From Bacteroidota bacterium (lineage in GTDB: Bacteria; Bacteroidota; Bacteroidia; B-17B0; Aurantibacillaceae), in NCBI GenBank assembly GCA_013816895.1, contig JACDDR010000028.1:1-40107 (forward strand): a DNA stretch of 40,107 bases. Direction: 5' to 3'. Below are positions 25,451 through 38,762 of the stretch, in pieces. Each line of letters opens with the position of its first letter. Within the stretch, counting starts at the first letter, position 1. Below the pieces are notes generated by a model. The model had not been told where the DNA came from. It saw only the letters and a list, made by a program, of their open reading frames with translations, and did no database searches. The position numbers and the translations under genes were made by a program.

Positions 25451-25870
25451 CTAATATACTTTTTCGAGAAGGATTTTTGTTAGTGGTTTATTAAGGAAAA
25501 TGATGTCTTCCGAAATGGCCATTGCTTTATATTTATCTTCCTGGTATACTGAGGAGGTCAAAATTACAAGCTTAGGCGCGTTGATCATTTTTTCAAGATT
25601 CTTTTTGTAATATTCGATAAACTGGAAACCATCCATAATAGGCATATTAATATCAATAAATATTACCTTCGGATACATTAGTAAATCAGCGCCACCCATG
25701 GTAACAAGATTCTGGAGAAATTCCAAAGCACTTTTTGCGCTGCTGTTTACATAGATCTTTTTCGAGAAATGGCTGGCCTCAATGATTTTTTCATTTATAA
25801 AATTATCGAGATCATTGTCATCAATGAGCATAACAGCTTGGTATTTGTATTTCGGCTCTTTTATTTTCAT
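25451..25870 (-). CDS. Single-domain response regulator (CheY-like)
   Basis: A 139-residue receiver domain with no output domain. The acidic pair is in MLIDDNDLDN, the phospho-acceptor is D73 in VIFIDINMPIMDG, the conserved Thr/Ser is in VILTSS and the lysine is in FLNKPL. Such stand-alone receivers in Bacteroidota often relay phosphate between hybrid kinases or act by protein contact. It is located 15 bp upstream of the receiver-PAS-kinase gene and 18 bp downstream of the helical protein gene on the same strand, so the three probably form one operon. Confidence 0.88.
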   Translation of the reverse strand: MKIKEPKYKYQAVMLIDDNDLDNFINEKIIEASHFSKKIYVNSSAKSALEFLQNLVTMGGADLLMYPKVIFIDINMPIMDGFQFIEYYKKNLEKMINAPKLVILTSSVYQEDKYKAMAISEDIIFLNKPLTKILLEKVY

Positions 25871-25888
25871 CCTTAATGCTTTAAAAAA

Positions 25889-27298
25889 TTAACTGTAGTT
25901 TTTGGCTAACGCCCCCTGCAAATGCGACAGTATCTGTGTTTCACCTTTATTCCGGGCCATAAATAAGGTAATAGAATCTTTTTGTTTACTGCTCAGCGGG
26001 CCCCCTCTTTTTCTCACGTCGGCTTCAAGCACTTTTAATAAATCAAGCACATGCGCATAATTTGTTATTTTTTCAGCCTTGATTTTTCTGTACACTCCTT
26101 TAAGAATACTATCCGCCATGTCATATTCGTGTAAAAGAATATAGGTATATGCAAGAGATATTTTTATGTCAGTATTAATATGAAAATAATCTTTAAAACT
26201 ATTCTCGTTTAAGAGTTTGTTTAATTTATTCGCAGATTCCTTAAAATTTTTTGAATAAACTTCCGCCATAGAATCGTACATGCCCATTAAAACCTTGGTA
26301 TGCATATCATTAACATCGAACAATATATTTTTCCGGTCACCTCCCACTAACTCTTTTTCTTTTCCCTGTAATTCTAAAAAACCCAACTTTGAAATAAGAA
26401 AACGCGAAGTGCAGCTTATGTTCGAATAAAGAAAAAGTGTACTAATCCCCGAATTCACTTTCTCATAAAATGTGGTAGCAGCTTTGGTATTACCGGTTTT
26501 ATAATAATACTCAAAATACAAATGCTCAAGGGCTGGTACCCATTTTTTTTGGCAAGATGATTCAGGCAACTCTTCAATTAATTTGTGCGTATGATGAAGC
26601 AATTCCTCTGCGTTTATTTCTTTATTCAAGTCTGTATGGCAAAAAATGCATAACTGGAGCTCCAGAAAATTTTTAACGATTTCAACCTGCCGCGAAGGAT
26701 TAAGAGAAAAGTGATCGTTGACCTCCTTCCGCATAAACAGAAGTGTTTCAATGATTTTTGGAACGCGTGAAAAATTATACTGCCCAAGCATACGATTGAA
26801 ATTTCCGAGTATTTCCTCCGCTTTTTCCAGACATAATCCAAACGCTATATGTTTATTATAAAGCTGAGAATATTGAAAATATTTTTCGGAATATAGGTGA
26901 ACCTTTTTAAGAGCACTATACACAATCAATAACTCATTATGCATGTCATACTTCAGAAGATCTTCTTCCAGCTTTTTCAAAAAAGCAACAGCAACATCTC
27001 GCGGTTCTGAAAGACACATACCGGTAACGAGATTTAATTTTTTAAGTAAGCCCTCACGATTATCGTGTATATCGCCCGAGAGTTCCTGCTGGATTTTATG
27101 ATACAGGCGCGACTTCAGCACGTAAAACGAATTGGAATTAAGATTCAGTTTTTTTATTACTTGTTCATCGTTTAAGTTTTCGCGATACGATTGAAGCAAA
27201 CACAAAAAATTTTCCGATTTATTTTTAACAAGAGTTTTTTCTATCGCCCTATATATCTCCGAATCCAGCTGCGAAATTATTTTTTTAAGTTTGATCAT
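25889..27298 (-). CDS. Unrecognised all-helical (TPR-like) protein with HTH-like N-terminus, in signalling operon
   Basis: A 469-residue cytoplasmic protein (no signal or membrane segment) that I do not recognise as a named family. The N-terminal 70 residues contain LLQSYRENLNDEQVIKKLNL then NSFYVLKSRLYHKIQQEL, a helix-turn-helix-like arrangement resembling sigma-region-4 or small DNA-binding domains. The rest is a chain of amphipathic helices with TPR-like features (YYKTGNTKAATTFYEKV, AYTYILLHEYDMADSILKGVY). Position directly upstream of a response regulator and a hybrid kinase suggests a regulatory role. It is divergent from the NarL-type regulator gene at 27513 with 214 bp between them. 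Its function is open. Confidence 0.75.
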   Translation of the reverse strand: MIKLKKIISQLDSEIYRAIEKTLVKNKSENFLCLLQSYRENLNDEQVIKKLNLNSNSFYVLKSRLYHKIQQELSGDIHDNREGLLKKLNLVTGMCLSEPRDVAVAFLKKLEEDLLKYDMHNELLIVYSALKKVHLYSEKYFQYSQLYNKHIAFGLCLEKAEEILGNFNRMLGQYNFSRVPKIIETLLFMRKEVNDHFSLNPSRQVEIVKNFLELQLCIFCHTDLNKEINAEELLHHTHKLIEELPESSCQKKWVPALEHLYFEYYYKTGNTKAATTFYEKVNSGISTLFLYSNISCTSRFLISKLGFLELQGKEKELVGGDRKNILFDVNDMHTKVLMGMYDSMAEVYSKNFKESANKLNKLLNENSFKDYFHINTDIKISLAYTYILLHEYDMADSILKGVYRKIKAEKITNYAHVLDLLKVLEADVRKRGGPLSSKQKDSITLFMARNKGETQILSHLQGALAKNYS

Positions 27299-27323
27299 TA
27301 AATCTTTACATCAAAATGTTTAA

Positions 27324-27331
27324 TATCTTTG
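27324..27331 (+). promoter_or_regulatory. Candidate -7 element TATCTTTG upstream of NarL-type regulator gene
   Basis: This octamer is an exact match to TAnnTTTG on the plus strand, 181 bp before the GTG start at 27513. No TTTG -33 box stands at the normal 17-23 bp distance. It would give a long leader containing the operator-like repeats just before the start codon. Confidence 0.25.
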
Positions 27332-27474
27332 CTACATAATAAATAGGAAAACAACATTCTCTCAAATATAAACCAAATACCACCCTTAGAAAATGATACA
27401 GATAATGTACCAGTCACCGACATTTTTTATACTATGCTAACAATCAATTACTTAATTATTAATGGGAATTTTTT

Positions 27475-27514
27475 CCTGGGTAAACACCTAGGTATTTCTA
27501 ATAGAATACCCAGT
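27475..27514 (+). promoter_or_regulatory. Operator-like triplet of CCTRGGTA half-sites at regulator start
   Basis: CCTGGGTA (27475-27482) and CCTAGGTA (27487-27494) are direct repeats 12 bp apart, and TACCCAGT (27507-27514) is the inverted copy (7 of 8 bases). The inverted copy overlaps the GTG start of the NarL-type regulator. The arrangement suggests binding of a dimeric regulator, perhaps the regulator itself, or an RNA hairpin between CTGGGTA and TACCCAG that would sequester the start. Confidence 0.45.
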
Positions 27515-28175
27515 GCAGGAAAATAGGCCAATAAGCATTTTAGTGACGGAAGATCAGGAGCTGATGCGTAAGTCTTTTATCGCATTGCTTAAACAGAATT
27601 CCGCGTTCGAGGTGGTAGCCGAAGCATCCAACGGAAAGGAGTTGCTTGAGATTTTAAAACATAACCTCCCCGATATTGTTTTGCTGGATATTGAAATGCC
27701 GTTAATGAACGGCAAAGAAGCGTTGGAAATAATTGTCAGGCGTTTTCCCGGATTAAAAGTTATCATGCTCAGCATGCACGCCGGCCCCACTTTTATAGCT
27801 GAATTAATGGCGCGGGGCGCAAGGGCATTTTTACCAAAGGGCTGCGACCCCGCCTCTCTTTTTACAGCCATTCATACTGTTTATTCTGAAGGCTATTATT
27901 TTGATAAAACCATTTCAGAAGCCATGTTACGAGGACTTCAGAAAGAGAAATCAATCAATCCCATACTCGATGAACTCGCGCTCAGCGAACGTGAAGTAAA
28001 AATATTAAAAGAGATTTGTGACGGAAAAACAAATAAGGACATCGCCGAAGGTTTGTGCGTGTCAGTAAGCACTATTGATTTTCACCGGGCTAACATTTAT
28101 AAAAAAACATGTTCGCACAACATTACCGATTTACTAAAATACGCGATTAAAAACGGGTTCGTGTCGCTAGCGTAA
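27513..28175 (+). CDS. NarL/LuxR-family DNA-binding response regulator
   Basis: A 220-residue regulator. Residues 7-125 are a receiver with acidic residues in VTEDQE, phospho-acceptor D59 (VLLDIEMPLMNG), MLSMHAG and the lysine in FLPKGCD. Residues about 153-215 form a LuxR-type HTH: LSEREVKILKEICDGKTNKDIA, then VSVSTIDFHRANIYKK. GTG at 27513 is taken because an in-frame TAG lies 24 bp upstream and the receiver needs these residues. The 3' end overlaps the convergent SPW gene by 9 bp. No adjacent kinase is on the same strand, but the divergent operon at 23568-27298 encodes one that may phosphorylate it. Confidence 0.9.
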   Translation: MQENRPISILVTEDQELMRKSFIALLKQNSAFEVVAEASNGKELLEILKHNLPDIVLLDIEMPLMNGKEALEIIVRRFPGLKVIMLSMHAGPTFIAELMARGARAFLPKGCDPASLFTAIHTVYSEGYYFDKTISEAMLRGLQKEKSINPILDELALSEREVKILKEICDGKTNKDIAEGLCVSVSTIDFHRANIYKKTCSHNITDLLKYAIKNGFVSLA

Positions 28176-28550
28176 ACTCAGAGAACTCTTCTCAACTCTT
28201 TGAGAGTTCACTTTTTCATTAAGTCCGCCAGAATTTGCGATTTGTAACAATCCAAAAATCAGGTGCGGAGCGTATATGTATTCACTGAAATCATAAAGCC
28301 AGGGGCTTGCGGCCAGGAAAACTCCAAAGGTGCAATCAGCTGCTTTGTGCATTTCAACGCTGAAAATTTTTACCAGCCCGAAGTTCAGGTTGGAAAAAAG
28401 AGTATAAGCAATTAGAATAACACCCATCACCATTGGCACATCCTGAACAACATCAAGACCTGCGAATCCGAACAACCAGGGAGAAACCAGTAAAAGCGTC
28501 CCTAAAGTGTAGTCCACAATTCCATGCCATTTTTCGGTAAATATTTTCAT
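28167..28550 (-). CDS. SPW-repeat membrane protein
   Basis: A 127-residue inner-membrane protein with four hydrophobic segments in two similar halves. Each half carries the SPW signature: LLVSPWLFGF at about 21-30 and AASPWLYDF at about 80-88. The halves are also alike before it (KWHGIVDYTLGTLL and MHKAADCTFGVFLA), so it arose by internal duplication. Function of the SPW family is not established. It is transcribed away from the YciF-type gene and its last 9 bp overlap the end of the NarL-type regulator gene. Confidence 0.88.
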   Translation of the reverse strand: MKIFTEKWHGIVDYTLGTLLLVSPWLFGFAGLDVVQDVPMVMGVILIAYTLFSNLNFGLVKIFSVEMHKAADCTFGVFLAASPWLYDFSEYIYAPHLIFGLLQIANSGGLNEKVNSQRVEKSSLSLR

Positions 28551-28741: not shown

Positions 28742-29314
28742 ATGAAAACATCCGGCAAAAAAAGCACTAAATCAGAAGCAATGGAATATGGTATGGAAGA
28801 ATCTACCTTAATGAAGTTGTTTGAAAACGAGTTAAAAGATATTTACTGGGCTGAAAAGGCGTTGGTGAAAGCCATTCCGAAAATGATAAAAAAAGCAACC
28901 TCAGACGAATTGATTGAAGCGCTTGAAACACACCTGGAAGAAACCGAGAACCAGGTAAAAAAAGTAGAGCGTGTTTTTGAATCGATTAATAAAAAACCTG
29001 TTGCCAAAAAGTGCGAAGCCATGAACGGCCTTATTAAAGAGGCGGAAGAGATAATGAAAGAATCAGAAGATGGCGCTATGCGTGATGCCGGAATTATAAC
29101 TGCCGCTCAAAAAGTTGAGCATTACGAAATCGCTTCCTACGGAACTTTACGCACCTTTGCTCAAACCCTTGGGCTGGACGAAGCAGTAACATTACTTGAA
29201 GAAATTCTTGAAGAAGAAAAAACGGCTGACCTGAAATTAACAGAGGTTGCAGAAGCTACCATCAACATCCAGGCAGCCACTGAAGTGGAAGAGGACGCTG
29301 AAGAAGAAGAATAG
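28742..29314 (+). CDS. YciF/YciE-type ferritin-like protein (DUF892)
   Basis: A 190-residue four-helix protein. The core (residues about 22-175) matches the DUF892 family: LFENELKDIYWAEKALVKAIPKM, LEETENQVKKVERVFE, DAGIITAAQKVEHYEIASYGTL and LLEEILEEEKTADLKLTEVAE. The repeated Glu plus ExxH-type residues (E31, E38, E65 region, VEHYEIASY) resemble a di-metal ferritin-like site. Family members are induced by osmotic or general stress in enterobacteria. The N-terminal 20 residues are Lys/Ser-rich and the last 12 are a Glu-rich tail, both likely disordered. The gene is followed 26 bp later by a strong terminator and then the cyanophycin operon. Confidence 0.85.
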   Translation: MKTSGKKSTKSEAMEYGMEESTLMKLFENELKDIYWAEKALVKAIPKMIKKATSDELIEALETHLEETENQVKKVERVFESINKKPVAKKCEAMNGLIKEAEEIMKESEDGAMRDAGIITAAQKVEHYEIASYGTLRTFAQTLGLDEAVTLLEEILEEEKTADLKLTEVAEATINIQAATEVEEDAEEEE

Positions 29315-29340: not shown

Positions 29341-29367
29341 AAAAGGCAACTACGGGTTGCCTTTTTT
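29341..29367 (+). terminator. Strong intrinsic terminator between YciF-type gene and cphA
   Basis: A perfect 10-bp stem, AAAAGGCAAC (29341-29350) with GTTGCCTTTT (29356-29365), closes a 5-base loop and runs into T residues. It lies 26 bp after the ferritin-like gene and its T-run ends only 19 bp before the cphA ATG at 29387. It therefore either separates the two genes, leaving almost no room for a cphA promoter, or works as an attenuator on read-through. Confidence 0.88.
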
Positions 29368-29386: not shown

Positions 29387-31978
29387 ATGAAACTAATAGA
29401 AACGAAAGTGATGCGCGGGCCCAATTATTGGTCAGTAGACCAGGGCTCCTTAATAGTGCTCAAAATCCAGTTAGATGATATAGCTGAAAGTGAGGTAAAC
29501 ACTGTCATGCAAAAAGCCATCCTGGAAATTCCGGCATTATCGTCGAAACATCATATTCAAGATCATGTTCAGAAAGGTCTTCCGTTGCTTATAAAGCATC
29601 TGGCCGTTGAACTGCAGTGCATGGCGGAAATGCCATGTACCTACGCCCGGTCAAGAGCCGGAAGTAACAAGGGCGAACACTTTATAATTGTGGAGTATAC
29701 CATTGAGGAGGCGGGTGTGCATGCTGCAAAAACGGCTCTTCATATTACAGAAGCCTTGCTCAAAGGGGAACCGGTAGATATTAAATCTCACATCAGTGAG
29801 CTTAACGAAATCAGACATTCCCGTAAACTCGGCGCCACATCTGCTGATATCCTTGATGCGGTAAAGGAAAGAAAAATTCCATTCCGACGTTTCGATAATG
29901 GCTCGCTGATCATATTGGGTTACGGCAATAAACAACAGAAGATCCGTACCGCTGTAACCGACTCCACCAGCGGCCTTGGAATAGAGTTAGCGGGCGACAA
30001 GGAGGAAACAAAAAAAATGCTGGCGGAAGCTAATGTACCCGTTCCAAAAGGCATTCTTGTTTACAGCGAAGCCGGTTTAAGAGAACGCATCATTGAAGTT
30101 AAATTCCCTGTTGTTATAAAACCACTGGATGGAAATCACGGACGCGGAGTAACTACGAATATAATGGACGTTGAGAAAGCAGTTTTCGGTTTCACTATAG
30201 CAAAAAAGATCTCTAAAGCCGTTATTCTTGAGGAATACATTGAAGGAAATGATTACCGCTTTCTGGTAATCAATTTTAAATTAATCGCGGTTGCCAAACG
30301 GACTCCGGCTTTTGTGAAAGGCGACGGAAAATCCACTATTCAGCAACTCGTTGATGAGGAAAATAAAAACCCGGAACGAGGCAGCGAAGAAAAACATGTT
30401 CTGGCTATCATAAAAATTGATGAAGTCACTAAAAAAATACTTTCCGAAAAAAATCTAAGTGCTGATTCTATTCCTGCTTCCGGTGAAATTATTGTTTTAA
30501 AAGACACTGCCAATATCAGCGCAGGCGGAACAGCTGAAGATGTCACTGAAACAGTTCATCCCGAAAATATTTTTATGGCCGAACGCGTTGCGAAAATGTT
30601 TAACCTCAATATCTGCGGAATTGACGTTATGGCAAAAGCTGTAGATATTCCTATTACGCGCGAGGTGGGAGCGGTTATCGAAGTGAATGCTGGTCCGGGT
30701 TTGCGTATGCACTCGAATCCACAGGGCGGAAAAATCCGGGACGTAGCCTCACCTATTGTTGAAATGATGTTTCCTACGCCGCAACATGCGCGAATTCCAA
30801 TTGTTGCAGTCACCGGCACAAATGGAAAAACTACTACCACCAGGATGATTGCTCACCTTGCAAAACACGCGGGGCATACGCCGGGTTTCTGCACTACTGA
30901 AGGAATATACGTTGACGGACATATGACCTTTGAAGGCGATTGCACCGGTTATCTCAGCGCTCACGACGTGTTATTTGACCCCGTAGTAGACTTTGCGGTA
31001 CTTGAATGCGCGCGAGGCGGCATCCTGAAATCCGGTCTTGGTTTTGATCATTGCGACATCAGCGTGGTTACCAATATTACAGAAGATCATCTTGGACTGA
31101 AAGACATAAATACTCTTGAAGATATGGCCAAGGTTAAAAGTGTAGTTGCAAGGAGCACCACTAAAAACGGATACTCTATTTTAAATGCTGACAATGATCT
31201 CTCCTATAAAATAATGGATGACCTTGAATGCAACGTAGCATTATTCAGCATGAAAAGCGAAAATGAAAGAATAAAAGAACATGTTAAAAATGGCGGGCTT
31301 GCCGCTACTGTTGAAAGCGGATATGTGATTGTACACAAAGGGAAAACAAAAATACAAATAGAACTTATCGATAACATTCCTGTTACGTTTAAAGGGAAGG
31401 CAAGTTATATGATCAAGAATATTTTACCTGCTGTTCTTACAGGCATCATCAGTGGTTTTACGGTAGATGAAATTCAGAAAGGATTAAAAACTTTTTATCC
31501 ATCGCCACACTTAACACCGGGCAGAATGAATCTGTTTGACTTTACCCGCTTCAAAGTAATGATTGATTACGCGCATAACATGGACGGGTTCTTTGAGCTT
31601 AAACGCTTTCTTGATGAAGTAGAAGACTCTCCCAAAGTGGGCCTGATAGCTGTAGCCGGCGACAGACGCGATGAAGACATCAGACATGTGGGTTTACTGG
31701 CGGCAACCATGTTTGACAAGATCATTATCAAACATGATAAAGACTTGCGGGGACGCACCGCTGAAAACATCTCCGAACTTTTACTGGAAGGCATATCGCA
31801 AATAAATAAGGCAGTTCCCACAATGATTATTTCAGAGGAAAAGGAAGCCATTGAATATGCTCTTGACAATGCTGAAAAAGGATCATTCATTCTCATTTGC
31901 GCCGGCATTGTTTCAGAAACTGTTGACCAGGTAAGTCAGCTTTATAAAATAAACAGTTTAATAACGCAGATACATTAA
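29387..31978 (+). CDS. cphA: Cyanophycin synthetase, copy 1 (N-domain HxxEH motif lost)
   Basis: Polymerises cyanophycin: the ATP-grasp domain adds Asp to the backbone C-terminus and the Mur-ligase-like domain links Arg to each Asp side chain. The protein is 863 residues, normal for CphA. The start is ATG 29387 because the family opening KVMRGPNYWS follows at once; a TTG frame 30 bp upstream would run through the terminator. The ATP-grasp part shows KPLDGNHGRG (245-254), ANISAGGTAEDVT and EVNA (432-435). The Mur part shows GTNGKTTTT (from 477), VLECARGGI, ITEDHL, DYAHN and DRRDEDIR, so both synthetic sites look intact. The N domain reads LPLLIKHLAVELQ where copy 2 has IGHVVEHIALEIQ, so the metal-type HxxEH is gone (first His to L67, Glu to K70). 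It is the first gene of a tight operon with cphB and iaaA. Confidence 0.95.
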   Translation: MKLIETKVMRGPNYWSVDQGSLIVLKIQLDDIAESEVNTVMQKAILEIPALSSKHHIQDHVQKGLPLLIKHLAVELQCMAEMPCTYARSRAGSNKGEHFIIVEYTIEEAGVHAAKTALHITEALLKGEPVDIKSHISELNEIRHSRKLGATSADILDAVKERKIPFRRFDNGSLIILGYGNKQQKIRTAVTDSTSGLGIELAGDKEETKKMLAEANVPVPKGILVYSEAGLRERIIEVKFPVVIKPLDGNHGRGVTTNIMDVEKAVFGFTIAKKISKAVILEEYIEGNDYRFLVINFKLIAVAKRTPAFVKGDGKSTIQQLVDEENKNPERGSEEKHVLAIIKIDEVTKKILSEKNLSADSIPASGEIIVLKDTANISAGGTAEDVTETVHPENIFMAERVAKMFNLNICGIDVMAKAVDIPITREVGAVIEVNAGPGLRMHSNPQGGKIRDVASPIVEMMFPTPQHARIPIVAVTGTNGKTTTTRMIAHLAKHAGHTPGFCTTEGIYVDGHMTFEGDCTGYLSAHDVLFDPVVDFAVLECARGGILKSGLGFDHCDISVVTNITEDHLGLKDINTLEDMAKVKSVVARSTTKNGYSILNADNDLSYKIMDDLECNVALFSMKSENERIKEHVKNGGLAATVESGYVIVHKGKTKIQIELIDNIPVTFKGKASYMIKNILPAVLTGIISGFTVDEIQKGLKTFYPSPHLTPGRMNLFDFTRFKVMIDYAHNMDGFFELKRFLDEVEDSPKVGLIAVAGDRRDEDIRHVGLLAATMFDKIIIKHDKDLRGRTAENISELLLEGISQINKAVPTMIISEEKEAIEYALDNAEKGSFILICAGIVSETVDQVSQLYKINSLITQIH

Positions 31979-31979
31979 T

Positions 31980-32866
31980 ATGCTTAGAAAAGTACCTAAA
32001 GGCAGTCTGTTAATTATTGGCGGTGCCGAAGATAAAGGGGGAGACGAACATCCAATAATAAAAGGCAGAAATAAACAATACGAGGCGCATGAGATATTAA
32101 ACCTGCTCCTTCCCGAACGAAAAAATTCCGGCAACATAGAAATTATAACAACCGCTTCTTCGGAGCCCGACCAGATAAGCAAACGCTACCAACACGCCTT
32201 CTTAGAATTTGGTTATAAACGCGTAGGCTTCATTAACATGGGAAATAGTTACGACGCCAGTAACCCAGAATATAAAAAAAGAATAGAGAAAGCGCACGCT
32301 GTTCTTTTCAGTGGCGGTGACCAATTCAGACTTTCAACCATTCTGGGCAATACAGATATATTGCAGGTCATCCGCGAAAAATATTTAACGACCCGGGCTT
32401 CATCGTAGCAGGAACCAGTGCCGGCGCAGCAGCTGCAGGCATGTTAATGATGTTTGAAGGTGAGAATAATGAAGCCCTTTTAAAAGGCGGAGTAAAGATA
32501 AGTTCAGGACTAGGCTTTGTAGATGGTTGCCTGATTGATACGCATTTCGTGAAACGCGGAAGATTCGGCCGACTCGCGGAAGCCGTTGTGATGAATCCGA
32601 CATGCATTGGAATTGGACTGGGCGAAGACACTGCTCTGCTTATAAAAAAAGGCAAAGATGCCCGGTGTCTTGGCTCCGGCATGGTTATTATCATCGATGG
32701 CAATGACGTTGGACACACTAACATTGCTTATGCCCCTGTAGATTCTCCGTTATGTATTGAGAACCTTCGCGTTCATGTTTTATGTAAAGGAAGTGGGTAC
32801 AATTTAGAAAAGCGCAAATTCGTACCATCGATAGAAGATCTTAAAGAGGAAAAAAAACTCATCTGA
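31980..32866 (+). pseudogene. cphB: Cyanophycinase, copy 1, with one-base frameshift before the catalytic serine
   Basis: Serine exopeptidase of family S51 that cuts cyanophycin to beta-Asp-Arg dipeptides. The first frame (31980-32408) encodes GSLLIIGGAEDKG, IITTAS and FSGGDQFRLS, then stops shortly after EKYL. The conserved continuation is in the next frame from about 32387: NDPGFIVAGTSAGAAA with the nucleophile, DTHFVKRGRFGRL with the His, and GIGLGEDTALL with the Glu. One added T in the TTT at 32384-32386 would give KYFNDPGF and a 295-residue protein, against 297 for copy 2. Everything else is intact, so this is a very recent lesion, a sequencing error in a short homopolymer, or recoding. 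The gene begins 1 bp after cphA and ends 7 bp before iaaA. Confidence 0.9.
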
Positions 32867-32873
32867 CTATTCT

Positions 32874-33791
32874 ATGTCTAAAATAGCAGTAGGTATACAT
32901 GGAGGTGCCAGGCCGGATTCAGAATTTATCCGGACTAATATTAATGGTTATAAAAAAGCACTGAAAGAATCTGCTGAATTATCCTACGATTTATTAAAAC
33001 GCGGCAAGTGCGCATTAGACGCGGCCGAGGCAGCCATTTCATTTTTAGAAGACTGCGTTTTATTTAATGCCGGCCGGGGTTCTGCAATCAATTCTGTGGG
33101 CATGGTTGAAATGGATGCGTCTATTATGGATGGAAACGATTTACGATGTGGTGCGGTAGCCCTGCTTCGTTTTGTAAAAAATCCGGTGGGTCTTGCCCGA
33201 TTGATCCTTGAGGACAGTCACCACGTTCTGCTGGGCGGTGAAGGTGCGATTGAATATGCGAAAAACAAAGGCGTAAAACTAGAACACGAAGGATATTTTG
33301 TTGTCCCGCATCAGTATGATGCATACATGAAAAAAAGAGATAAATTATCTCCGCAGGAAAAAGAAGACCTTAAAAATCATGGCACTGTTGGTGTTATAGC
33401 GCTTGATAAAAAAGGAAATATTGCATCAGCTACATCAACGGGGGGAACATCCTTTAATAAACAAGGACGTATTGGCGATGCTGCAATGATTGGAATTGGA
33501 TGTTATGCCGATAACAGAACATGCGGCGTTTGCGCAACAGGCGATGGTGAAATAAATATCAGAACTATTGCTGCCGGTTATGTTTCAATGCTGGTTGAAC
33601 AAAAGCTGATGAATGTTCAGGAAGCCTGCGATTATGTGATCCATCAGAAAAATAAACATGTGAAAGGAGATATGGGCCTGATTGCTCTCGACAAATATGG
33701 CAATTTTGCAACCGCCCATAATTCAGAACTCATGCACCGGGCCTGGATAACTCCCGATCAGGAATTAACCATTAAGGTTTATGAAAAATAA
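32874..33791 (+). CDS. iaaA: Isoaspartyl peptidase/L-asparaginase (Ntn hydrolase), copy 1, divergent pocket
   Basis: Plant-type asparaginase family enzyme of 305 residues that cleaves itself before T171 (NHGTVGVIALD) to make alpha and beta subunits and then hydrolyses beta-aspartyl dipeptides. In this setting the likely substrate is the beta-Asp-Arg released by cyanophycinase. Conserved parts are IHGGA at the N-terminus, LFNAGRGSAI (sodium-loop region), EMDASIMDG, ATSTGG and GRIGD with R199/D202. Unlike copy 2, the pocket reads GDAAMIGIGCYAD in place of GDSPIIGAGTYAN, and CATGDGE in place of SCTGHGE. The altered residues flank the substrate-binding Arg/Asp and the oxyanion Thr-Gly, so specificity may differ. 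It is the last gene of the first cyanophycin operon. Confidence 0.92.
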   Translation: MSKIAVGIHGGARPDSEFIRTNINGYKKALKESAELSYDLLKRGKCALDAAEAAISFLEDCVLFNAGRGSAINSVGMVEMDASIMDGNDLRCGAVALLRFVKNPVGLARLILEDSHHVLLGGEGAIEYAKNKGVKLEHEGYFVVPHQYDAYMKKRDKLSPQEKEDLKNHGTVGVIALDKKGNIASATSTGGTSFNKQGRIGDAAMIGIGCYADNRTCGVCATGDGEINIRTIAAGYVSMLVEQKLMNVQEACDYVIHQKNKHVKGDMGLIALDKYGNFATAHNSELMHRAWITPDQELTIKVYEK

Positions 33792-34045
33792 GTATGGTAA
33801 TCTTTTAAAAGGTTTTATCACCGGGATATATTTTGTTGGATACGATTCTTTATCACATCGGTATAACCCCGAACTGGGTAAACTATCCACCATTTAACAT
33901 TCGGGGAAAAGTCTTAAGTTACTAGTTTACATCTCTGTTTCGCTTTGGCATGCTTTTTTAACGTATAAAGTGAAACTATCTGTAATTAACATTATAGCGG
34001 TTGTGAAAGCGTAAATTCAATTATGTAAGCATGATTTTTTTTACG

Positions 34046-34067
34046 TGCCATCAAATATTTTGTGGCA
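34046..34067. promoter_or_regulatory. Imperfect 22-bp palindrome upstream of second cphA
   Basis: TGCCATCAAAT is followed directly by ATTTTGTGGCA; 9 of 11 positions are complementary, with outer TGCCA/TGGCA arms and an AAATATTT centre. It has the form of an operator for a dimeric regulator, about 215 bp before the second cphA start and 54 bp before the terminator. Confidence 0.4.
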
Positions 34068-34120
34068 TTGTTAAAAACGTTAGTCAATTTGTACTATTCA
34101 TTAAATTGGCTGTACAAATA

Positions 34121-34152
34121 CCGTCGGTCTTACAGAAAGTCCGGCGGTTTTT
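34121..34152 (+). terminator. Intrinsic terminator in the leader of second cphA
   Basis: CCGTCGG (34121-34127) pairs with CCGGCGG (34141-34147) over seven pairs, one of them a G-U wobble, with a 13-base loop and five T. It lies 330 bp behind iaaA copy 1 and 130 bp before cphA copy 2. It may end the first operon or attenuate a transcript that enters the second. Confidence 0.65.
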
Positions 34153-34281
34153 GCATTTACAACCCTCCCCACTTCTACAGACTGTAGAAAATACTCTCGC
34201 TTTGCCTGTAAGGGTAAAACTGATTTCCAGTCATTTAGAATTTGGTATAATTTTTAATACAGCCTTATTAAATTCCCATAT

Positions 34282-36933
34282 ATGAAGATCAACAGTATTA
34301 AGGTAATGAGGGGGCCGAACTTCTGGTCGAATTATCGCCAAAACATTATTATCATGAAGCTGGACCTGGAAGAGCTAGAGGCTTTTCCGACAAATAAAAT
34401 TGAAGGTTTCTCTGAACGCATTGAACAACTCATCCCAAGCATGTACACACACCGGTGCTCCGAAGCTCATGAGGGCGGGTTCTTTTTCCGGATTAAACAC
34501 GGTACCTGGATTGGTCATGTGGTGGAACATATAGCTCTTGAAATACAAACCCTGGCCGGGATGGACTGCGGCTATGGCAGAACTCGCTCTGCGGACAAAG
34601 CGGGCGAGTATTATGTTATTTTTGCTTATCATGTGGAAAAAGCTGGTCTTTATGCCGCTGAAGCCGCCTTAAGAATAGCGCGGGCACTCGTAGACAATGT
34701 TCCGTACGATATTAATAAAGATATTGAAGCGCTGAAACGGATTAAAGCCAAATACGGATTTGGGCCAAGTACCCAGGCTATTGTAGAAGAAGCACAGTCA
34801 CGCGGAATCCCGTTTAAAAGATTAAACAACAGCTCATTTGTGCTTTTTGGTCAGGGAATACATCAGAAAAAGATCCGCGCTACTCTTACAGGTTCTACAA
34901 GTCATATGGGTGTTGAGATAGCCTGTGATAAAAATGAAACCAAACAAATTCTTAAATCAGCATATATTCCCACGCCGGAAAGCATTTTAATTGATCATGA
35001 AGAAGATCTGGAAGCAACTGTAGAAAAAATAGGATACCCTGTTGTGATTAAACCCATTAATGGAAATCATGGAAGAGGCATCACCATAAACATTCAAACA
35101 ATGGATCAGGCGCGTGATGCTTTCAAGCTCGCGCGGGAAATATCAGAAGATGTGTTGGTAGAAAAATTTATGCAAGGCTGCGATTTTCGTTTCCTTCTTA
35201 TTAATTTTAAATTAGTGGCTGTTGCTAAACGCACGCCCGCTCTTGTAACAGGCGACGGCCATTCCACGATCGCACAACTGATCGACCGGATCAATTGCGA
35301 TCCAAACCGCGGCGAAGGGCACGAAAAAATTCTCACCAAAATAAAAATCGATAAAATAACCTCTGATATCCTGTCCCAGAAAAATTACACATTGGAAACA
35401 ATACCGTCCTTTGACGAAGTGGTATTACTGAAAGACACGGCCAATATTAGCACAGGAGGCACAGCAACTGACGTAACGCATCTTGTTCACCCATACAATA
35501 TTTTTATGGCTGAGCGAATTGCGAGATTACTTAATATGGATATCTGCGGCATTGATGTGATTGCAACGGCCATTGACAAACCTCTCACAGATGAGAATGG
35601 CGGCATCCTGGAAGTCAACGCGTGTCCTGGTTTCCGCATGCACTTGTTCCCTTCAAAAGGGAAACCAATAAATGTGGCGGCGCATGTTGTTGACATGCTT
35701 TATCCGCGCGGAGCTGAATCACGCATTCCGCTGGTTGCAGTTACCGGCACCAATGGCAAAACCACTACCACAAGGCTTATCGCCCATATGGCTAAGCAAT
35801 CCGGTCACCATGTAGGCTACACAACTACCGATGGAACTTATATCCAGGGGCATTTAATTCACCGGGGCGATTGTACCGGGCCGGTAAGTGCTCAAACAGT
35901 ACTGACTGATCCAACCATCGACTTTGCAGTGCTTGAATGCGCGCGTGGCGGAATATTAAGAGCAGGATTAGGATTTGACCACTGCGATATCAGCATCATT
36001 ACAAATATTTCTGAAGATCATTTATCGCTGGATGGGATCGATACACTGAGAGATATGGCCCGCGTGAAATCGGTAGTTGCTCACAGCACGTTCAAACACG
36101 GTTATGCCATTCTGAATGCTGATGATGAACGTGTTTACGATATGCGCGAAGAGCTGGATTGCAACATTGCCTTATTCAGCATTGATTCAGAAAATGAAAG
36201 AGTTGTAAGTCACTGTAAGAATGGTGGCTTAGCAGTAGTAATTGAATACGGCTTTGTAACCATTTGTGCCGGGCAGACTAAAATACCAGTGGAGAAAATT
36301 GATGATATTCCATTGTCGTTTTCGGGAAGAGCCGACAGTATGATCAAAAATATTCTTCCGGCAGTATTAACCGCTTATTTAAAGAACTTTACTTTAAAAA
36401 ATATCAGGCTCGCTTTGAAAACTTTTATTCCTTCTCCCGAGTTTACCCCGGGACGGATGAACGTTTTTAATTTTCAGAACTTTGATGTGATGGTGGATTA
36501 CGCTCACAACAGTGGTGGGTTTATTGAACTAAAAAGTTTTATAGAAAAAACCCAATCGCCTAGTAAGGTCGGTATCATCGCCGCTGTGGGCGACCGCAGA
36601 GATGAAGACATTCGCAACATCGGAGCGTTTGCAGCGCAAATGTTTGATGAAGTGATCATCAGACATGATAAGGATCTGCGCGGAAGAACCAGGGAAGAGT
36701 TAACGGAGTTAATCCTTCAGGGTATTCATTCGCAAAAACAGCACATGCCGGTAAAAGTTATTTCTGACGAAAAAGAAGCCATCGAATACGCAATGAATAA
36801 TGCAAAAAAAGGAGCTTTTATAACAGTATGCACAGATGCAGTTCAAAAAACCATTGAATATCTCGGACAACTTCAGAAAGAAGAACAATTAAGATCAGGA
36901 TCTTACCAGAATATTTTACTAAAGGCATCATAA
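34282..36933 (+). CDS. cphA: Cyanophycin synthetase, copy 2 (canonical, N-domain HxxEH present)
   Basis: An 883-residue CphA with all three domains in canonical form. The N domain (1 to about 160) opens with KVMRGPNFWS and has HGTWIGHVVEHIALEIQ, in which H79-x-x-E82-H83 is an inverted-zincin-like HxxEH motif. As I recall, some CphA proteins use a hydrolytic site in this domain to make their own primers. The ATP-grasp part carries KPINGNHGRG, ANISTGGTATDVT and EVNACPGFRMH. The Mur-ligase part carries GTNGKTTTT (from 489), VLECARGGI, ISEDHL, DYAHN and DRRDEDIR. It differs from copy 1 by about 20 extra residues, mostly in the N domain and at the C-terminus (EEQLRSGSYQNILLKAS). An 11-bp gap leads to cphB copy 2. 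The 130-bp leader follows a terminator, so separate control from module 1 is likely. Confidence 0.96.
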   Translation: MKINSIKVMRGPNFWSNYRQNIIIMKLDLEELEAFPTNKIEGFSERIEQLIPSMYTHRCSEAHEGGFFFRIKHGTWIGHVVEHIALEIQTLAGMDCGYGRTRSADKAGEYYVIFAYHVEKAGLYAAEAALRIARALVDNVPYDINKDIEALKRIKAKYGFGPSTQAIVEEAQSRGIPFKRLNNSSFVLFGQGIHQKKIRATLTGSTSHMGVEIACDKNETKQILKSAYIPTPESILIDHEEDLEATVEKIGYPVVIKPINGNHGRGITINIQTMDQARDAFKLAREISEDVLVEKFMQGCDFRFLLINFKLVAVAKRTPALVTGDGHSTIAQLIDRINCDPNRGEGHEKILTKIKIDKITSDILSQKNYTLETIPSFDEVVLLKDTANISTGGTATDVTHLVHPYNIFMAERIARLLNMDICGIDVIATAIDKPLTDENGGILEVNACPGFRMHLFPSKGKPINVAAHVVDMLYPRGAESRIPLVAVTGTNGKTTTTRLIAHMAKQSGHHVGYTTTDGTYIQGHLIHRGDCTGPVSAQTVLTDPTIDFAVLECARGGILRAGLGFDHCDISIITNISEDHLSLDGIDTLRDMARVKSVVAHSTFKHGYAILNADDERVYDMREELDCNIALFSIDSENERVVSHCKNGGLAVVIEYGFVTICAGQTKIPVEKIDDIPLSFSGRADSMIKNILPAVLTAYLKNFTLKNIRLALKTFIPSPEFTPGRMNVFNFQNFDVMVDYAHNSGGFIELKSFIEKTQSPSKVGIIAAVGDRRDEDIRNIGAFAAQMFDEVIIRHDKDLRGRTREELTELILQGIHSQKQHMPVKVISDEKEAIEYAMNNAKKGAFITVCTDAVQKTIEYLGQLQKEEQLRSGSYQNILLKAS

Positions 36934-36944
36934 AAGCAGATTTT

Positions 36945-37838
36945 ATGACACCAAAAGGAAAGCTTTTAATTATTGGTGGGGCTGAAGATAAAGGCCCCAT
37001 AAGGATCAGGCCGCAGATAAAATTAAAAAACAAAAATTTTATTGACTATGAGATCCTGAATTATTTGATACCCCCTGAGGGGAGTAAGTTTAACAGAATT
37101 GAAATAATTACCACTGCTTCGCAACAACCTTTCAAAACCGGTAACATGTATATCCGTTCCTTTAAAAAGGCCGGGTTTAATAATGTTAACCACATGAATA
37201 TTGAAAATAAGGAGGACTTAAAAAATCCGGATCTTATTCCAAGGATTGAAAATGCCGATACGGTGTTTTTCAGTGGGGGAGATCAGTTCAGGCTCTCTAC
37301 TATTATTGGCGGCTCGGCCTTGATGCAGGTGATCATGAAACGCTACATGAAAGACGAAGGCTTTATGCTTGCGGGTACAAGTGCGGGAGCAATGGCCATG
37401 GGACGGCTCATGATCTATCATGCCGAAAACAACGAAGCCATGCTTAAAGGACATGTAAAAATAACCTATGGCCTCGAAGTTCTGGACAGTTGCATTGTGG
37501 ATACACATTTTGTAAAACGCGGGCGCTTCGGAAGACTTGCTCAGGCAGTGGCCATGAACCCGTTAAGCCTGGGTATAGGAATAGGAGAAGATACAGGTTT
37601 ACTTATTACGAAAGGAAATGAAGCAACCTGTGTAGGCTCCGGAATGGTAATCATCATCGATGGAACACGGATAAAGTATAACAGTATTAATGTTATTGAA
37701 GATAATTTTCCGCTGGGCCTGGAGGGTTTAAAAGTTCATATGCTCGCGAGGGGAAATGGATTTTTTCTTCATGAAAAAAAGTTTGTTCCAAATGCCGAAG
37801 CCTTTGCCACAAGATTTTTAATAAATTCCAGTCACTAA
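36945..37838 (+). CDS. cphB: Cyanophycinase, copy 2 (intact)
   Basis: A 297-residue S51-family serine peptidase that degrades cyanophycin to beta-Asp-Arg. No signal peptide is present, so it acts in the cytoplasm on the stored granules. The conserved residues are all there: GGAEDKG (11-17), FSGGDQFRLS with Q114, nucleophile S146 in AGTSAGAMA, H188 in DTHFVKRGRFGRL and E215 in GIGIGEDTGLL. It is cotranscribed with cphA copy 2 (11-bp gap) and supplies an intact degradative enzyme even if copy 1 is inactive. Its last 21 bp overlap the convergent iaaA copy 2. Confidence 0.95.
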   Translation: MTPKGKLLIIGGAEDKGPIRIRPQIKLKNKNFIDYEILNYLIPPEGSKFNRIEIITTASQQPFKTGNMYIRSFKKAGFNNVNHMNIENKEDLKNPDLIPRIENADTVFFSGGDQFRLSTIIGGSALMQVIMKRYMKDEGFMLAGTSAGAMAMGRLMIYHAENNEAMLKGHVKITYGLEVLDSCIVDTHFVKRGRFGRLAQAVAMNPLSLGIGIGEDTGLLITKGNEATCVGSGMVIIIDGTRIKYNSINVIEDNFPLGLEGLKVHMLARGNGFFLHEKKFVPNAEAFATRFLINSSH

Positions 37839-38762
37839 TTCATCTTCACCGTGTTTACTGGCGCGGTACATCCCTTCTGTATTAAAGGGCATTTCAATGT
37901 TACCGTGAGTATCAATTGCAATCAGCCCGCCTTCGCCACCAAGCTTCTTAAGTTTATCTTTAACCACATAGTTGCAGGCTTCTTTTAATGTAAGTCCTTT
38001 GTATTCCATCAGGCATGAAATATCGTAGGCCACTACCGAACGAATAAAAAATTCGCCATGGCCTGTGCAGGAAATGGCGCAGGTTTTATTGTTGGCATAG
38101 GTACCGGCACCTATAATAGGACTATCCCCTATCCTACCGTGTTTTTTATTGGTCATTCCTCCGGTTGAAGTAGCGGCAGCCACGTTGCCAAATACATCAA
38201 GGGCCACAGCACCTACTGTACCAAATTTTTTTTCATCAATATCTTTTATAGCCGTATGATCAAGAACAATTGTATCCGATTCGCGTGCCCTTTTTAATTG
38301 ATCGTACCGGTATTGCACATAAAAGTATTCGTCTGTTTCCAGTGGAATTCCCATGGCACGTGCAAAATCAACAGCCCCGCTCCCCGATAAAAAAACATGT
38401 TCGGTATGATCCATTACTGCGCGGGCCAAATTAACAGGATTTCTAACATGGGTTACTCCGGTTACGGCACCGGCTTTTAATGTCTTGCCATCCATTATCG
38501 ACGCATCCATTTCGTTTTTTCCATCATGCGTAAAAACCGAACCTTTTCCGGCATTAAACAGCGGATTATCTTCCAGCTTTCGGACTACGGCTTCTACCGC
38601 ATCCACTGCCAGGCCATTCTTTAATAAAATTGCTTCCCCAGCAAGCACTGCTTCTTTTAAAGCGTCTGTATACATGGCCTCCTTTTCAGGATTCATTTGA
38701 GATTTTAATATGGTGCCCGCACCACCGTGCATGGCAATACCAATTTTTCTATTCATATACAA
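37818..38762 (-). CDS. iaaA: Isoaspartyl peptidase/L-asparaginase (Ntn hydrolase), copy 2, canonical
   Basis: A 314-residue plant-type asparaginase/isoaspartyl dipeptidase. Autocleavage is expected before T182 (FGTVGAVALD). The canonical motifs are MHGGAG, LFNAGKGSVF, NEMDASIMDG, AAATSTGGM, HGRIGDSPIIGAGTYA with R210/D213, and SCTGHGE. It would split beta-Asp-Arg from cyanophycinase into Asp and Arg and so complete the pathway. In contrast to copy 1 it is on the strand opposite to the synthetase and cyanophycinase, and its 3' end overlaps cphB copy 2 by 21 bp. The start could be M3 (MNRKIGIAMHGG), which is nearer the family norm. No signal peptide is present. Confidence 0.95.
   Translation of the reverse strand: MYMNRKIGIAMHGGAGTILKSQMNPEKEAMYTDALKEAVLAGEAILLKNGLAVDAVEAVVRKLEDNPLFNAGKGSVFTHDGKNEMDASIMDGKTLKAGAVTGVTHVRNPVNLARAVMDHTEHVFLSGSGAVDFARAMGIPLETDEYFYVQYRYDQLKRARESDTIVLDHTAIKDIDEKKFGTVGAVALDVFGNVAAATSTGGMTNKKHGRIGDSPIIGAGTYANNKTCAISCTGHGEFFIRSVVAYDISCLMEYKGLTLKEACNYVVKDKLKKLGGEGGLIAIDTHGNIEMPFNTEGMYRASKHGEDELVTGIY

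What the first reader, a model, noticed from the sequence alone, without database searches (positions are those of the whole stretch)
29387..38762. Duplicated, asymmetric cyanophycin locus in a Bacteroidota genome
Two full sets of synthetase, cyanophycinase and isoaspartyl peptidase lie side by side. Set 1 is a tight operon (gaps of 1 and 7 bp). Set 2 has the peptidase convergent. The sets have diverged in a coordinated manner: every set-1 protein has a departure from the canonical form (N-domain motif, frameshift, pocket motifs) and no set-2 protein has. Paired CphA proteins are known from other phyla, but a doubled three-gene module with one drifting set suggests either division of labour (a second polymer, or a heteromeric synthetase) or ongoing decay. 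What I see is the gene order and motifs; the division of labour is inference.
Basis: partly seen in the sequence, partly recalled or inferred. Interest (0 to 1): 0.85.

Follow-up and report, generated by a model that had tools for sequence, protein, structure and literature searches.

The report
Self-priming plus non-priming cyanophycin synthetase pair
Two neighbouring genes for enzymes of the kind that build the nitrogen-storage polymer cyanophycin are kept together in two groups of Bacteroidota, and one of the two has lost the motif of the site that makes starter pieces, so it likely depends on its neighbour to begin chains.

Summary
In detail: two CphA-CphB-IaaA sets lie side by side. "Drifting set" fits only the cyanophycinase. 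The set-1 synthetase (A1) belongs to an old clade (50 rows, SH-aLRT 100 on G+M domains) whose N-domain primer-making site (Cx19HxxEH) is broken in every row, while M-domain catalytic residues are kept in 50 of 50 and the named G residues in 44 of 50. Its G and M domains are as conserved as A2's; N-domain identity among the genus's orthologues is 58% against 79%. Full-length A1-type genes were found in 8 genomes of two genera of different orders, each with an N-intact partner (same contig in 7). A DUF892 gene lies 62-80 bp upstream in 8 of 8, with a hairpin between. Bacteroidota CphA genes seen singly keep the site in 65 of 68. CphB1 is failing in this genus: intact in one genome, broken here, not found in two. 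IaaA1 is a distinct subfamily, open in 4 of 4 though faster evolving than IaaA2. The genome also holds a third, separately N-dead CphA. Best reading: division of labour, self-priming A2 starting chains and primer-dependent A1 elongating. Biochemistry is untested.

The parts
28742..29314 (+). DUF892 (YciF-type) gene, the only DUF892 gene found in this genome; upstream partner of cphA-1
   Evidence: Pfam PF05974; single in this genome and the sole copy in 6 of the 8 A1 genomes; homologue in 7 of 7 fetched A1 loci plus the window, 1 of 7 A3 loci, 0 of 42 other CphA loci
29341..29365 (+). Hairpin followed by a T run, ending about 20 nt before cphA-1; predicted terminator/attenuator
   Evidence: A hairpin stands at this place in 8 of 8 A1 loci, with different letters in the two genera; z-scores -1.44 (window) to -5.80, so weak in the window alone
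29387..31978 (+). CphA-1 (A1): N-domain primer site lost, G and M catalytic residues intact
   Evidence: TIGR02068 1010 bits; motif table; tree; model pLDDT 85, best PDB match TeCphA1 7wae
31980..32866 (+). CphB-1 cyanophycinase, broken by one frame change just before the GTSAG motif
   Evidence: intact orthologue in G021, none found in G015 and G419
32874..33791 (+). IaaA-1 isoaspartyl peptidase of a distinct subfamily (D[MI]G, MHR, mostly STGGT, in place of EGG, MYR, STGGM)
   Evidence: PF01112; alignment of 6 IaaA-1-type and 6 IaaA-2-type rows; tree
34173..34189 (.). Palindrome TTCTACA-N-TGTAGAA upstream of cphA-2, candidate operator
   Evidence: Found upstream of A2 in 4 of 4 genus members that have the pair (one with a mismatch), not seen upstream of DUF892/A1; function not tested
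34282..36933 (+). CphA-2 (A2): N site C-H-E-H intact, G and M catalytic residues intact; Trp672 replaced by Thr
36945..37838 (+). CphB-2 cyanophycinase, intact
   Evidence: TIGR02069 199 bits; GTSAG present
37818..38762 (-). IaaA-2 isoaspartyl peptidase, common type, convergent
   Evidence: PF01112 385.6 bits; tree

Best explanation
This is a conserved locus for two cyanophycin synthetases: set 2 encodes one with the N-domain primer-site motif, set 1 encodes one that lost that motif but kept the catalytic residues of both polymerising domains, and set 2's enzyme likely supplies the primers that set 1's enzyme is predicted to elongate. Predicted working: A2 makes a little polymer and its N domain clips it into short segments; A1, which would be unable to clip, extends these and existing chains with Asp (G domain) and Arg (M domain). 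A1 is likely transcribed by read-through from the DUF892 gene across a hairpin, while A2-CphB2 has its own upstream region with a conserved palindrome, so chain number and chain length could be set separately. CphB-2 likely degrades the polymer of both enzymes, which would make CphB-1 dispensable. Shown: gene order, motif loss and retention, clade structure, co-occurrence, relative conservation, CphB-1 breakage and losses. Inferred: every enzymatic step, the primer transfer and the regulation.
For: N site incomplete in 50 of 50 A1-clade rows while D585/H586 are kept in 50 of 50 and all seven named G residues in 44 of 50. The clade is one branch on G+M columns. A1 G and M domains are as conserved as A2's, only N has diverged; G+M dN is below A2's in 6 of 6 pairs, dS is saturated. 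8 of 8 full-length A1-type genes come with an N-intact partner in the genome. Bacteroidota CphA genes seen singly keep the site in 65 of 68. DUF892 linkage and hairpin. Literature precedent read here: a SuCphA1 N domain added in trans makes primer-dependent TmCphA1 work without primer (PMC9262961, parts 1-3 of 7). CphB-1 is broken or missing in 3 of the 4 genomes that have CphB-2; its orthologue is the only cphB at the paired locus of the second genus, where CphB-2 is absent.
Against: No biochemistry or expression data. In SuCphA1 heterodimers, primer-free synthesis is somewhat better with the N site in cis than in trans. N-dead TmCphA1 makes polymer when expressed alone in E. coli, and Hymenobacter and Pontibacter carry N-dead CphA with no second one in the fetched stretch, so a partner is not strictly needed. 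G021's A1 has H267Q, and H267A inactivates SuCphA1's G domain. A degenerate A1-type gene in G426 (724 aa, M motif lost) has no adjacent partner, though that genome has two N-intact CphA genes elsewhere. The A1 type is rare: 3 of 395 evenly drawn class genomes, 3 of the 162 with CphA.
Confidence: 0.5

Rival explanations
1. A1 and A2 form a mixed (hetero-oligomeric) synthetase, in which A1 brings extra G/M sites and A2 brings the N site.
For: Tandem pairs in Proteobacteria look complementary: in 19 of 19 loci one protein is N-intact with the M motif lost and the other has an incomplete N site, H267Q and an intact M motif. Trp672, whose change turns the SuCphA1 tetramer into a dimer, is lost in both paralogues of one genus (A2 4 of 4, A1 4 of 4) and kept in both of the other (4 of 4 and 4 of 4).
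Against: The Trp672 contrast may be one evolutionary event per paralogue. Columns changing in both paralogues (8, expected 2.6) are no more than in a control with a non-partner CphA (9, expected 1.8). A1 has the catalytic residues for elongation and would not need to be mixed.
Confidence: 0.2
2. A1 is a regulatory or dosage isoform: the same polymer made under the control of the DUF892 operon, with loss of the N site merely tolerated.
For: DUF892-A1 linkage in 8 of 8 loci and a hairpin in between; the canonical CphA is present to make primers anyway.
Against: Does not by itself explain the loss of the site over a whole old clade, or the pairing on one locus.
Confidence: 0.2
3. A1 makes a second, chemically different polymer.
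For: IaaA-1 is a distinct subfamily with altered motifs that also stands beside the A3 synthetase in G373 and G434. Four columns differ in type between A1 and N-intact rows (166, 203, 284, 358).
Against: The Asp-site residues R323, N394, S396, R458 (S396 changed in one of 50 rows) and the ATP and catalytic residues of M are the same. The second genus has one common-type IaaA and one CphB at its paired locus.
Confidence: 0.08
4. Set 1 is decaying as a whole.
For: CphB-1 is frame-broken here and not found in G015 and G419. IaaA-1 has a higher dN than IaaA-2 in 6 of 6 pairs (0.15-0.28 against 0.09-0.20), and the A1 N domain a higher dN than A2's in 6 of 6.
Against: A1 and IaaA-1 are open in the 4 genus members that carry them; A1 G+M dN is below A2's in 6 of 6 pairs; the IaaA-1 catalytic Thr context is kept.
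Confidence: 0.02

Closest known systems
Cyanophycin synthetase 1, primer-independent (SuCphA1, Synechocystis UTEX2470)
   Same: A2 has the same N, G and M domains and the named catalytic residues.
   Different: A2 has Thr at Trp672 and stands beside an N-dead paralogue.
Primer-dependent CphA1 (TmCphA1, Tatumella morbirosei)
   Same: Lacks the N site (none of the four residues, PMC9262961); the window's A1 lacks three of the four, with only the last His matched.
   Different: A1 stands in a locus with a second, N-intact synthetase and falls in its own Bacteroidota clade; the locus of TmCphA1 was not examined here.
Tandem CphA pairs of Betaproteobacteria (two copies of cphA in activated-sludge taxa, PMC10687191, passages read; the names CphA' and CphA'' are recalled)
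   Same: Two adjacent synthetases, one N-intact and one with an incomplete N site.
   Different: There the N-intact protein has lost the M motif and Asp-site residues and the other has H267Q. In Bacteroidota A2 is complete and A1 usually lacks only N. They are separate branches.
Cyanophycin synthetase 2 (CphA2, cyanobacteria)
   Same: N site absent, as in A1 (stated in PMC9262961).
   Different: A1 is full length with an intact M motif; CphA2 uses one active site (PMC10206079). Fold match to CphA2 is weaker (7ta5 TMq 0.50 against 7wae 0.87).

Membership tests
Cyanophycin synthetase 1 (CphA1), A1 and A2 | Passes the curated TIGR02068 cut-off (850 bits) | tested here: met
   A1 1010, A2 1212.5 bits
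Cyanophycin synthetase 1 (CphA1), A1 and A2 | G-domain residues E215 H267 R309 R323 N394 S396 R458 and M-domain K499 D585 H586 | tested here: met
   window A1 and A2
Cyanophycin synthetase 1 (CphA1), A1 and A2 | Makes cyanophycin from Asp, Arg and ATP | not testable with these tools
   no assay
Primer-independent CphA1 (A1) | N-domain Cx19HxxEH site | tested here: not met
   A1: not met
Primer-independent CphA1 (A2) | N-domain Cx19HxxEH site | tested here: met
   A2: met
CphA2 (A1) | M domain without working active site, N motif absent | tested here: not met
   A1 lacks the N motif but keeps the M motifs
Proteobacterial complementary CphA pair | One member N-intact with lost M motif, the other with incomplete N site and H267Q | tested here: not met
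   A2 keeps M; window A1 keeps H267; G021's A1 has Q267
Cyanophycinase CphB (peptidase S51), CphB-1 | One open frame with the GTSAG nucleophile motif | tested here: not met
   frame broken at the motif; met in the G021 orthologue
IaaA (Asparaginase_2), IaaA-1 | Catalytic Thr context GTVG and full-length PF01112 match | tested here: met
   297.3 bits, residues 6-297; T171 column invariant in 12 of 12; that this Thr is the catalytic one follows from the first residue of the solved beta subunits

The most novel reading that the evidence does not exclude
Bacteroidota evolved a two-enzyme cyanophycin machine in which chain starting and chain elongation are split: a self-priming synthetase seeds chains for a dedicated elongation synthetase that has lost the primer-making site, and the same kind of split arose separately at least three times (A1 clade, A3 clade, Proteobacteria), going further in the last two, where the G site is altered as well.
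Probability: 0.35. Interest if true: 0.8.

Novelty: new variant of a known kind. Interest (0 to 1): 0.62.

Why it matters
How synthetases without the N site are primed in living cells is an open point; the authors of PMC9262961 suggest leftover chains or other small molecules. Here an N-dead synthetase is kept beside an N-intact one, which makes primer sharing directly testable. If true, it also offers a way to set chain number and chain length separately when making the polymer.

Tried and rejected
Recent local duplication: rejected, A1 and A2 group with their counterparts from the other genus and not with each other. Gene conversion between neighbours: rejected, A1 is no closer to its own A2 than to other A2s of the genus (G 52.9 against 52.9, M 58.7 against 58.8). 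Coevolution of A1 and A2 columns: 8 shared changes against 2.6 expected looked promising, but the non-partner control gave 9 against 1.8, so it was dropped; only Trp672 is kept, as a weak hint. A shared operator: the palindrome before A2 was sought before DUF892 and not found. dN/dS ratios: dS saturated, so only dN was used. CphA2 membership: rejected. Literature: the listings of searches showed no paper on such a pair in Bacteroidota; I did not read most of the listed papers, and the library lacks most subscription papers. Papers seen: PMC9262961 (parts 1-3 of 7), PMC10206079 (parts 1-2 of 5), PMC9427784 (passages and sections 9, 10), PMC10687191 (passages). The DUF892 search was seen as a listing only.

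Full report
What is there. The set-1 cyanophycinase is broken by one frame change just upstream of its GTSAG motif. The whole genome (197 contigs, 93% complete) holds a third CphA (A3) on contig 181 and a further cyanophycinase-like gene on contig 109.

Is set 1 real and kept? In 40 related genomes two more species of the genus have the same tandem locus with conserved flanks; a search of the genus gave a fourth. A sweep of the class (395 genomes, 162 with CphA; at most two candidates scored in each) showed a further case in another order, and its genus gave four. So full-length A1-type genes (over 1500 bits to the A1 profile, sequences checked) were found in 4 of 40 and 4 of 36 genomes of the two genera; a few partial CphA pieces at contig ends in these searches were not classified. 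All eight genomes have an N-intact CphA; in seven it lies on the same contig within a few kb, and in G419 the two lie near the ends of separate contigs. A ninth, degenerate relative (G426, 724 aa, M motif lost) has no adjacent partner.

What was lost. SuCphA1 uses C59, H79, E82 and H83 of its N domain to clip polymer into primers (PMC9262961). Among 132 CphA rows, 51 lack the complete site; in the window's A1 only the last His is matched. Fifty of these form one branch in a tree built from G and M columns only, SH-aLRT 100; the other is A3. The rows were chosen by similarity to A1, so this is not a census. All 50 keep D585 and H586; 44 of 50 keep all seven named G residues. The six exceptions are five rows with H267Q (G021's A1 and its database copy P0012 among them) and one with S396K.

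Drift or design. Among the four genus members the mean identity of A1 against A2 is 58.4 and 78.8% in the N domain, 77.8 and 75.4% in G, 77.2 and 74.4% in M. In the second genus it is 53.3 and 81.4, 87.1 and 88.6, 82.8 and 83.2. Only the N domain is released. dN tells the same (A1 G+M below A2 G+M in 6 of 6 pairs); dS is saturated, so no ratio is claimed. The predicted A1 structure still has a folded N domain and matches CphA1 best.

Is the loss tied to the partner? Where a Bacteroidota CphA was seen singly, the N site was intact in 65 of 68: 20 of 20 loci of single-copy genomes (L016-L035), 23 of 23 (L144, L146, L147, L149-L168), and 22 of 25 single-CphA stretches, one of the three misses being truncated. 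For 'single' means one in the fetched stretch; the loci were the best-scoring ones, not a random draw, and the three sets were not checked for shared species.

Locus anatomy. In both genera a DUF892 gene stands 62-80 bp before A1 in the same direction with a hairpin between. The shuffle z-scores run from -1.44 (the window) to -5.80, so the case rests on the recurrence at the same place with different letters. A DUF892 homologue is in 7 of 7 fetched A1 loci and the window, 1 of 7 A3 loci and 0 of 42 other CphA loci (the 42 include G419's A2 contig and the degenerate G426 gene). In 6 of the 8 A1 genomes it is the only DUF892 gene found; G427 and G434 have a second, the latter beside A3.

The other genes. 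CphB-1 is orthologous to the only cphB at the second genus's paired locus; three of those four genomes have further cyanophycinase-like genes elsewhere. In this genus, which also has CphB-2, it is intact in G021, broken in the window, and no copy was found in G015 and G419. This fits a redundant gene being lost while the synthetase stays. IaaA-1 groups with the IaaA beside A3 in G373 and G434, not with IaaA-2 (unrooted tree), and shares motifs with them: D[MI]G and MHR in 6 of 6, STGGT in 5 of 6. Against a purely constructive reading, IaaA-1 has a higher dN than IaaA-2 in 6 of 6 pairs.

A wider pattern. Among the 80 loci, 19 tandem loci (17 Betaproteobacteria, one Gammaproteobacteria, one of unassigned origin) pair an N-intact protein that lacks the D585-H586 motif with one that lacks C59, has H267Q and keeps the M motif (19 of 19). 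Two of the N-intact members have Arg at 267, their Asp-site residues R323 and R458 differ too, and one of the partners keeps H-E-H without the Cys, so the split is not a clean swap of whole sites. In a search seeded with A3, 76 of 116 rows (the query's own protein twice) are N-dead, of which 58 have Q, 7 K and 11 H at 267, all with the M motif. A1, A3, a Cytophagales pair of rows and the proteobacterial type are separate branches (quick tree). So loss of the N site has happened several times, with different degrees of further loss.

Interpretation. The simplest mechanism is that A2 provides primers and A1 elongates. Trans-priming of an N-dead synthetase by an N domain was shown in vitro for other species. 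The heteromer, dosage and second-polymer readings remain possible to the degrees given. That an N-dead CphA can work alone (TmCphA1 in E. coli) and stands alone in the fetched stretch of two Cytophagales shows that the partner is not indispensable in principle.

Noticed in passing
L052:11199-13799 (own genome, contig 181); relatives L174, L179, L180, L194, L195, L196: A third CphA (A3 type), N site lost separately and G-domain loop changed (GNHGRG to GHQGKC in the window's genome), M motifs intact; found in 7 genomes, in two of them (G373, G434) beside an IaaA of the IaaA-1 subfamily.
   Followed up: partly
L091, L092, L098, L100-L102, L108, L109, L111, L113, L115, L116, L119, L120, L122, L125, L132, L136, L138: Tandem CphA pairs, nearly all betaproteobacterial, look complementary: one N-intact without M motif, the next without the N-site Cys, with H267Q and intact M.
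   Followed up: partly
window:34173-34189: Conserved palindrome TTCTACA-N-TGTAGAA in the upstream region of cphA-2 in four species, candidate operator of an unknown regulator.
   Followed up: partly
L075 (Hymenobacter pini), L077 (Pontibacter mucosus): CphA without the N site and no second CphA in the fetched stretch; a further separate loss in Cytophagales.
   Followed up: no
L196, L180, L052: Homologues of some of the window's genes at 25451-28550 (response regulators, SPW protein, a 469-aa protein) also lie near A3-type synthetases; response regulators are common, so this is only a hint of a shared neighbourhood.
   Followed up: partly
G000 contig 109:24775-25614: A further cyanophycinase-like gene (47% to CphB-1 of G021) elsewhere in the window's genome.
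   Followed up: no
L040:9053-10099: In G021 a mechanosensitive channel gene lies between the two sets.
   Followed up: no
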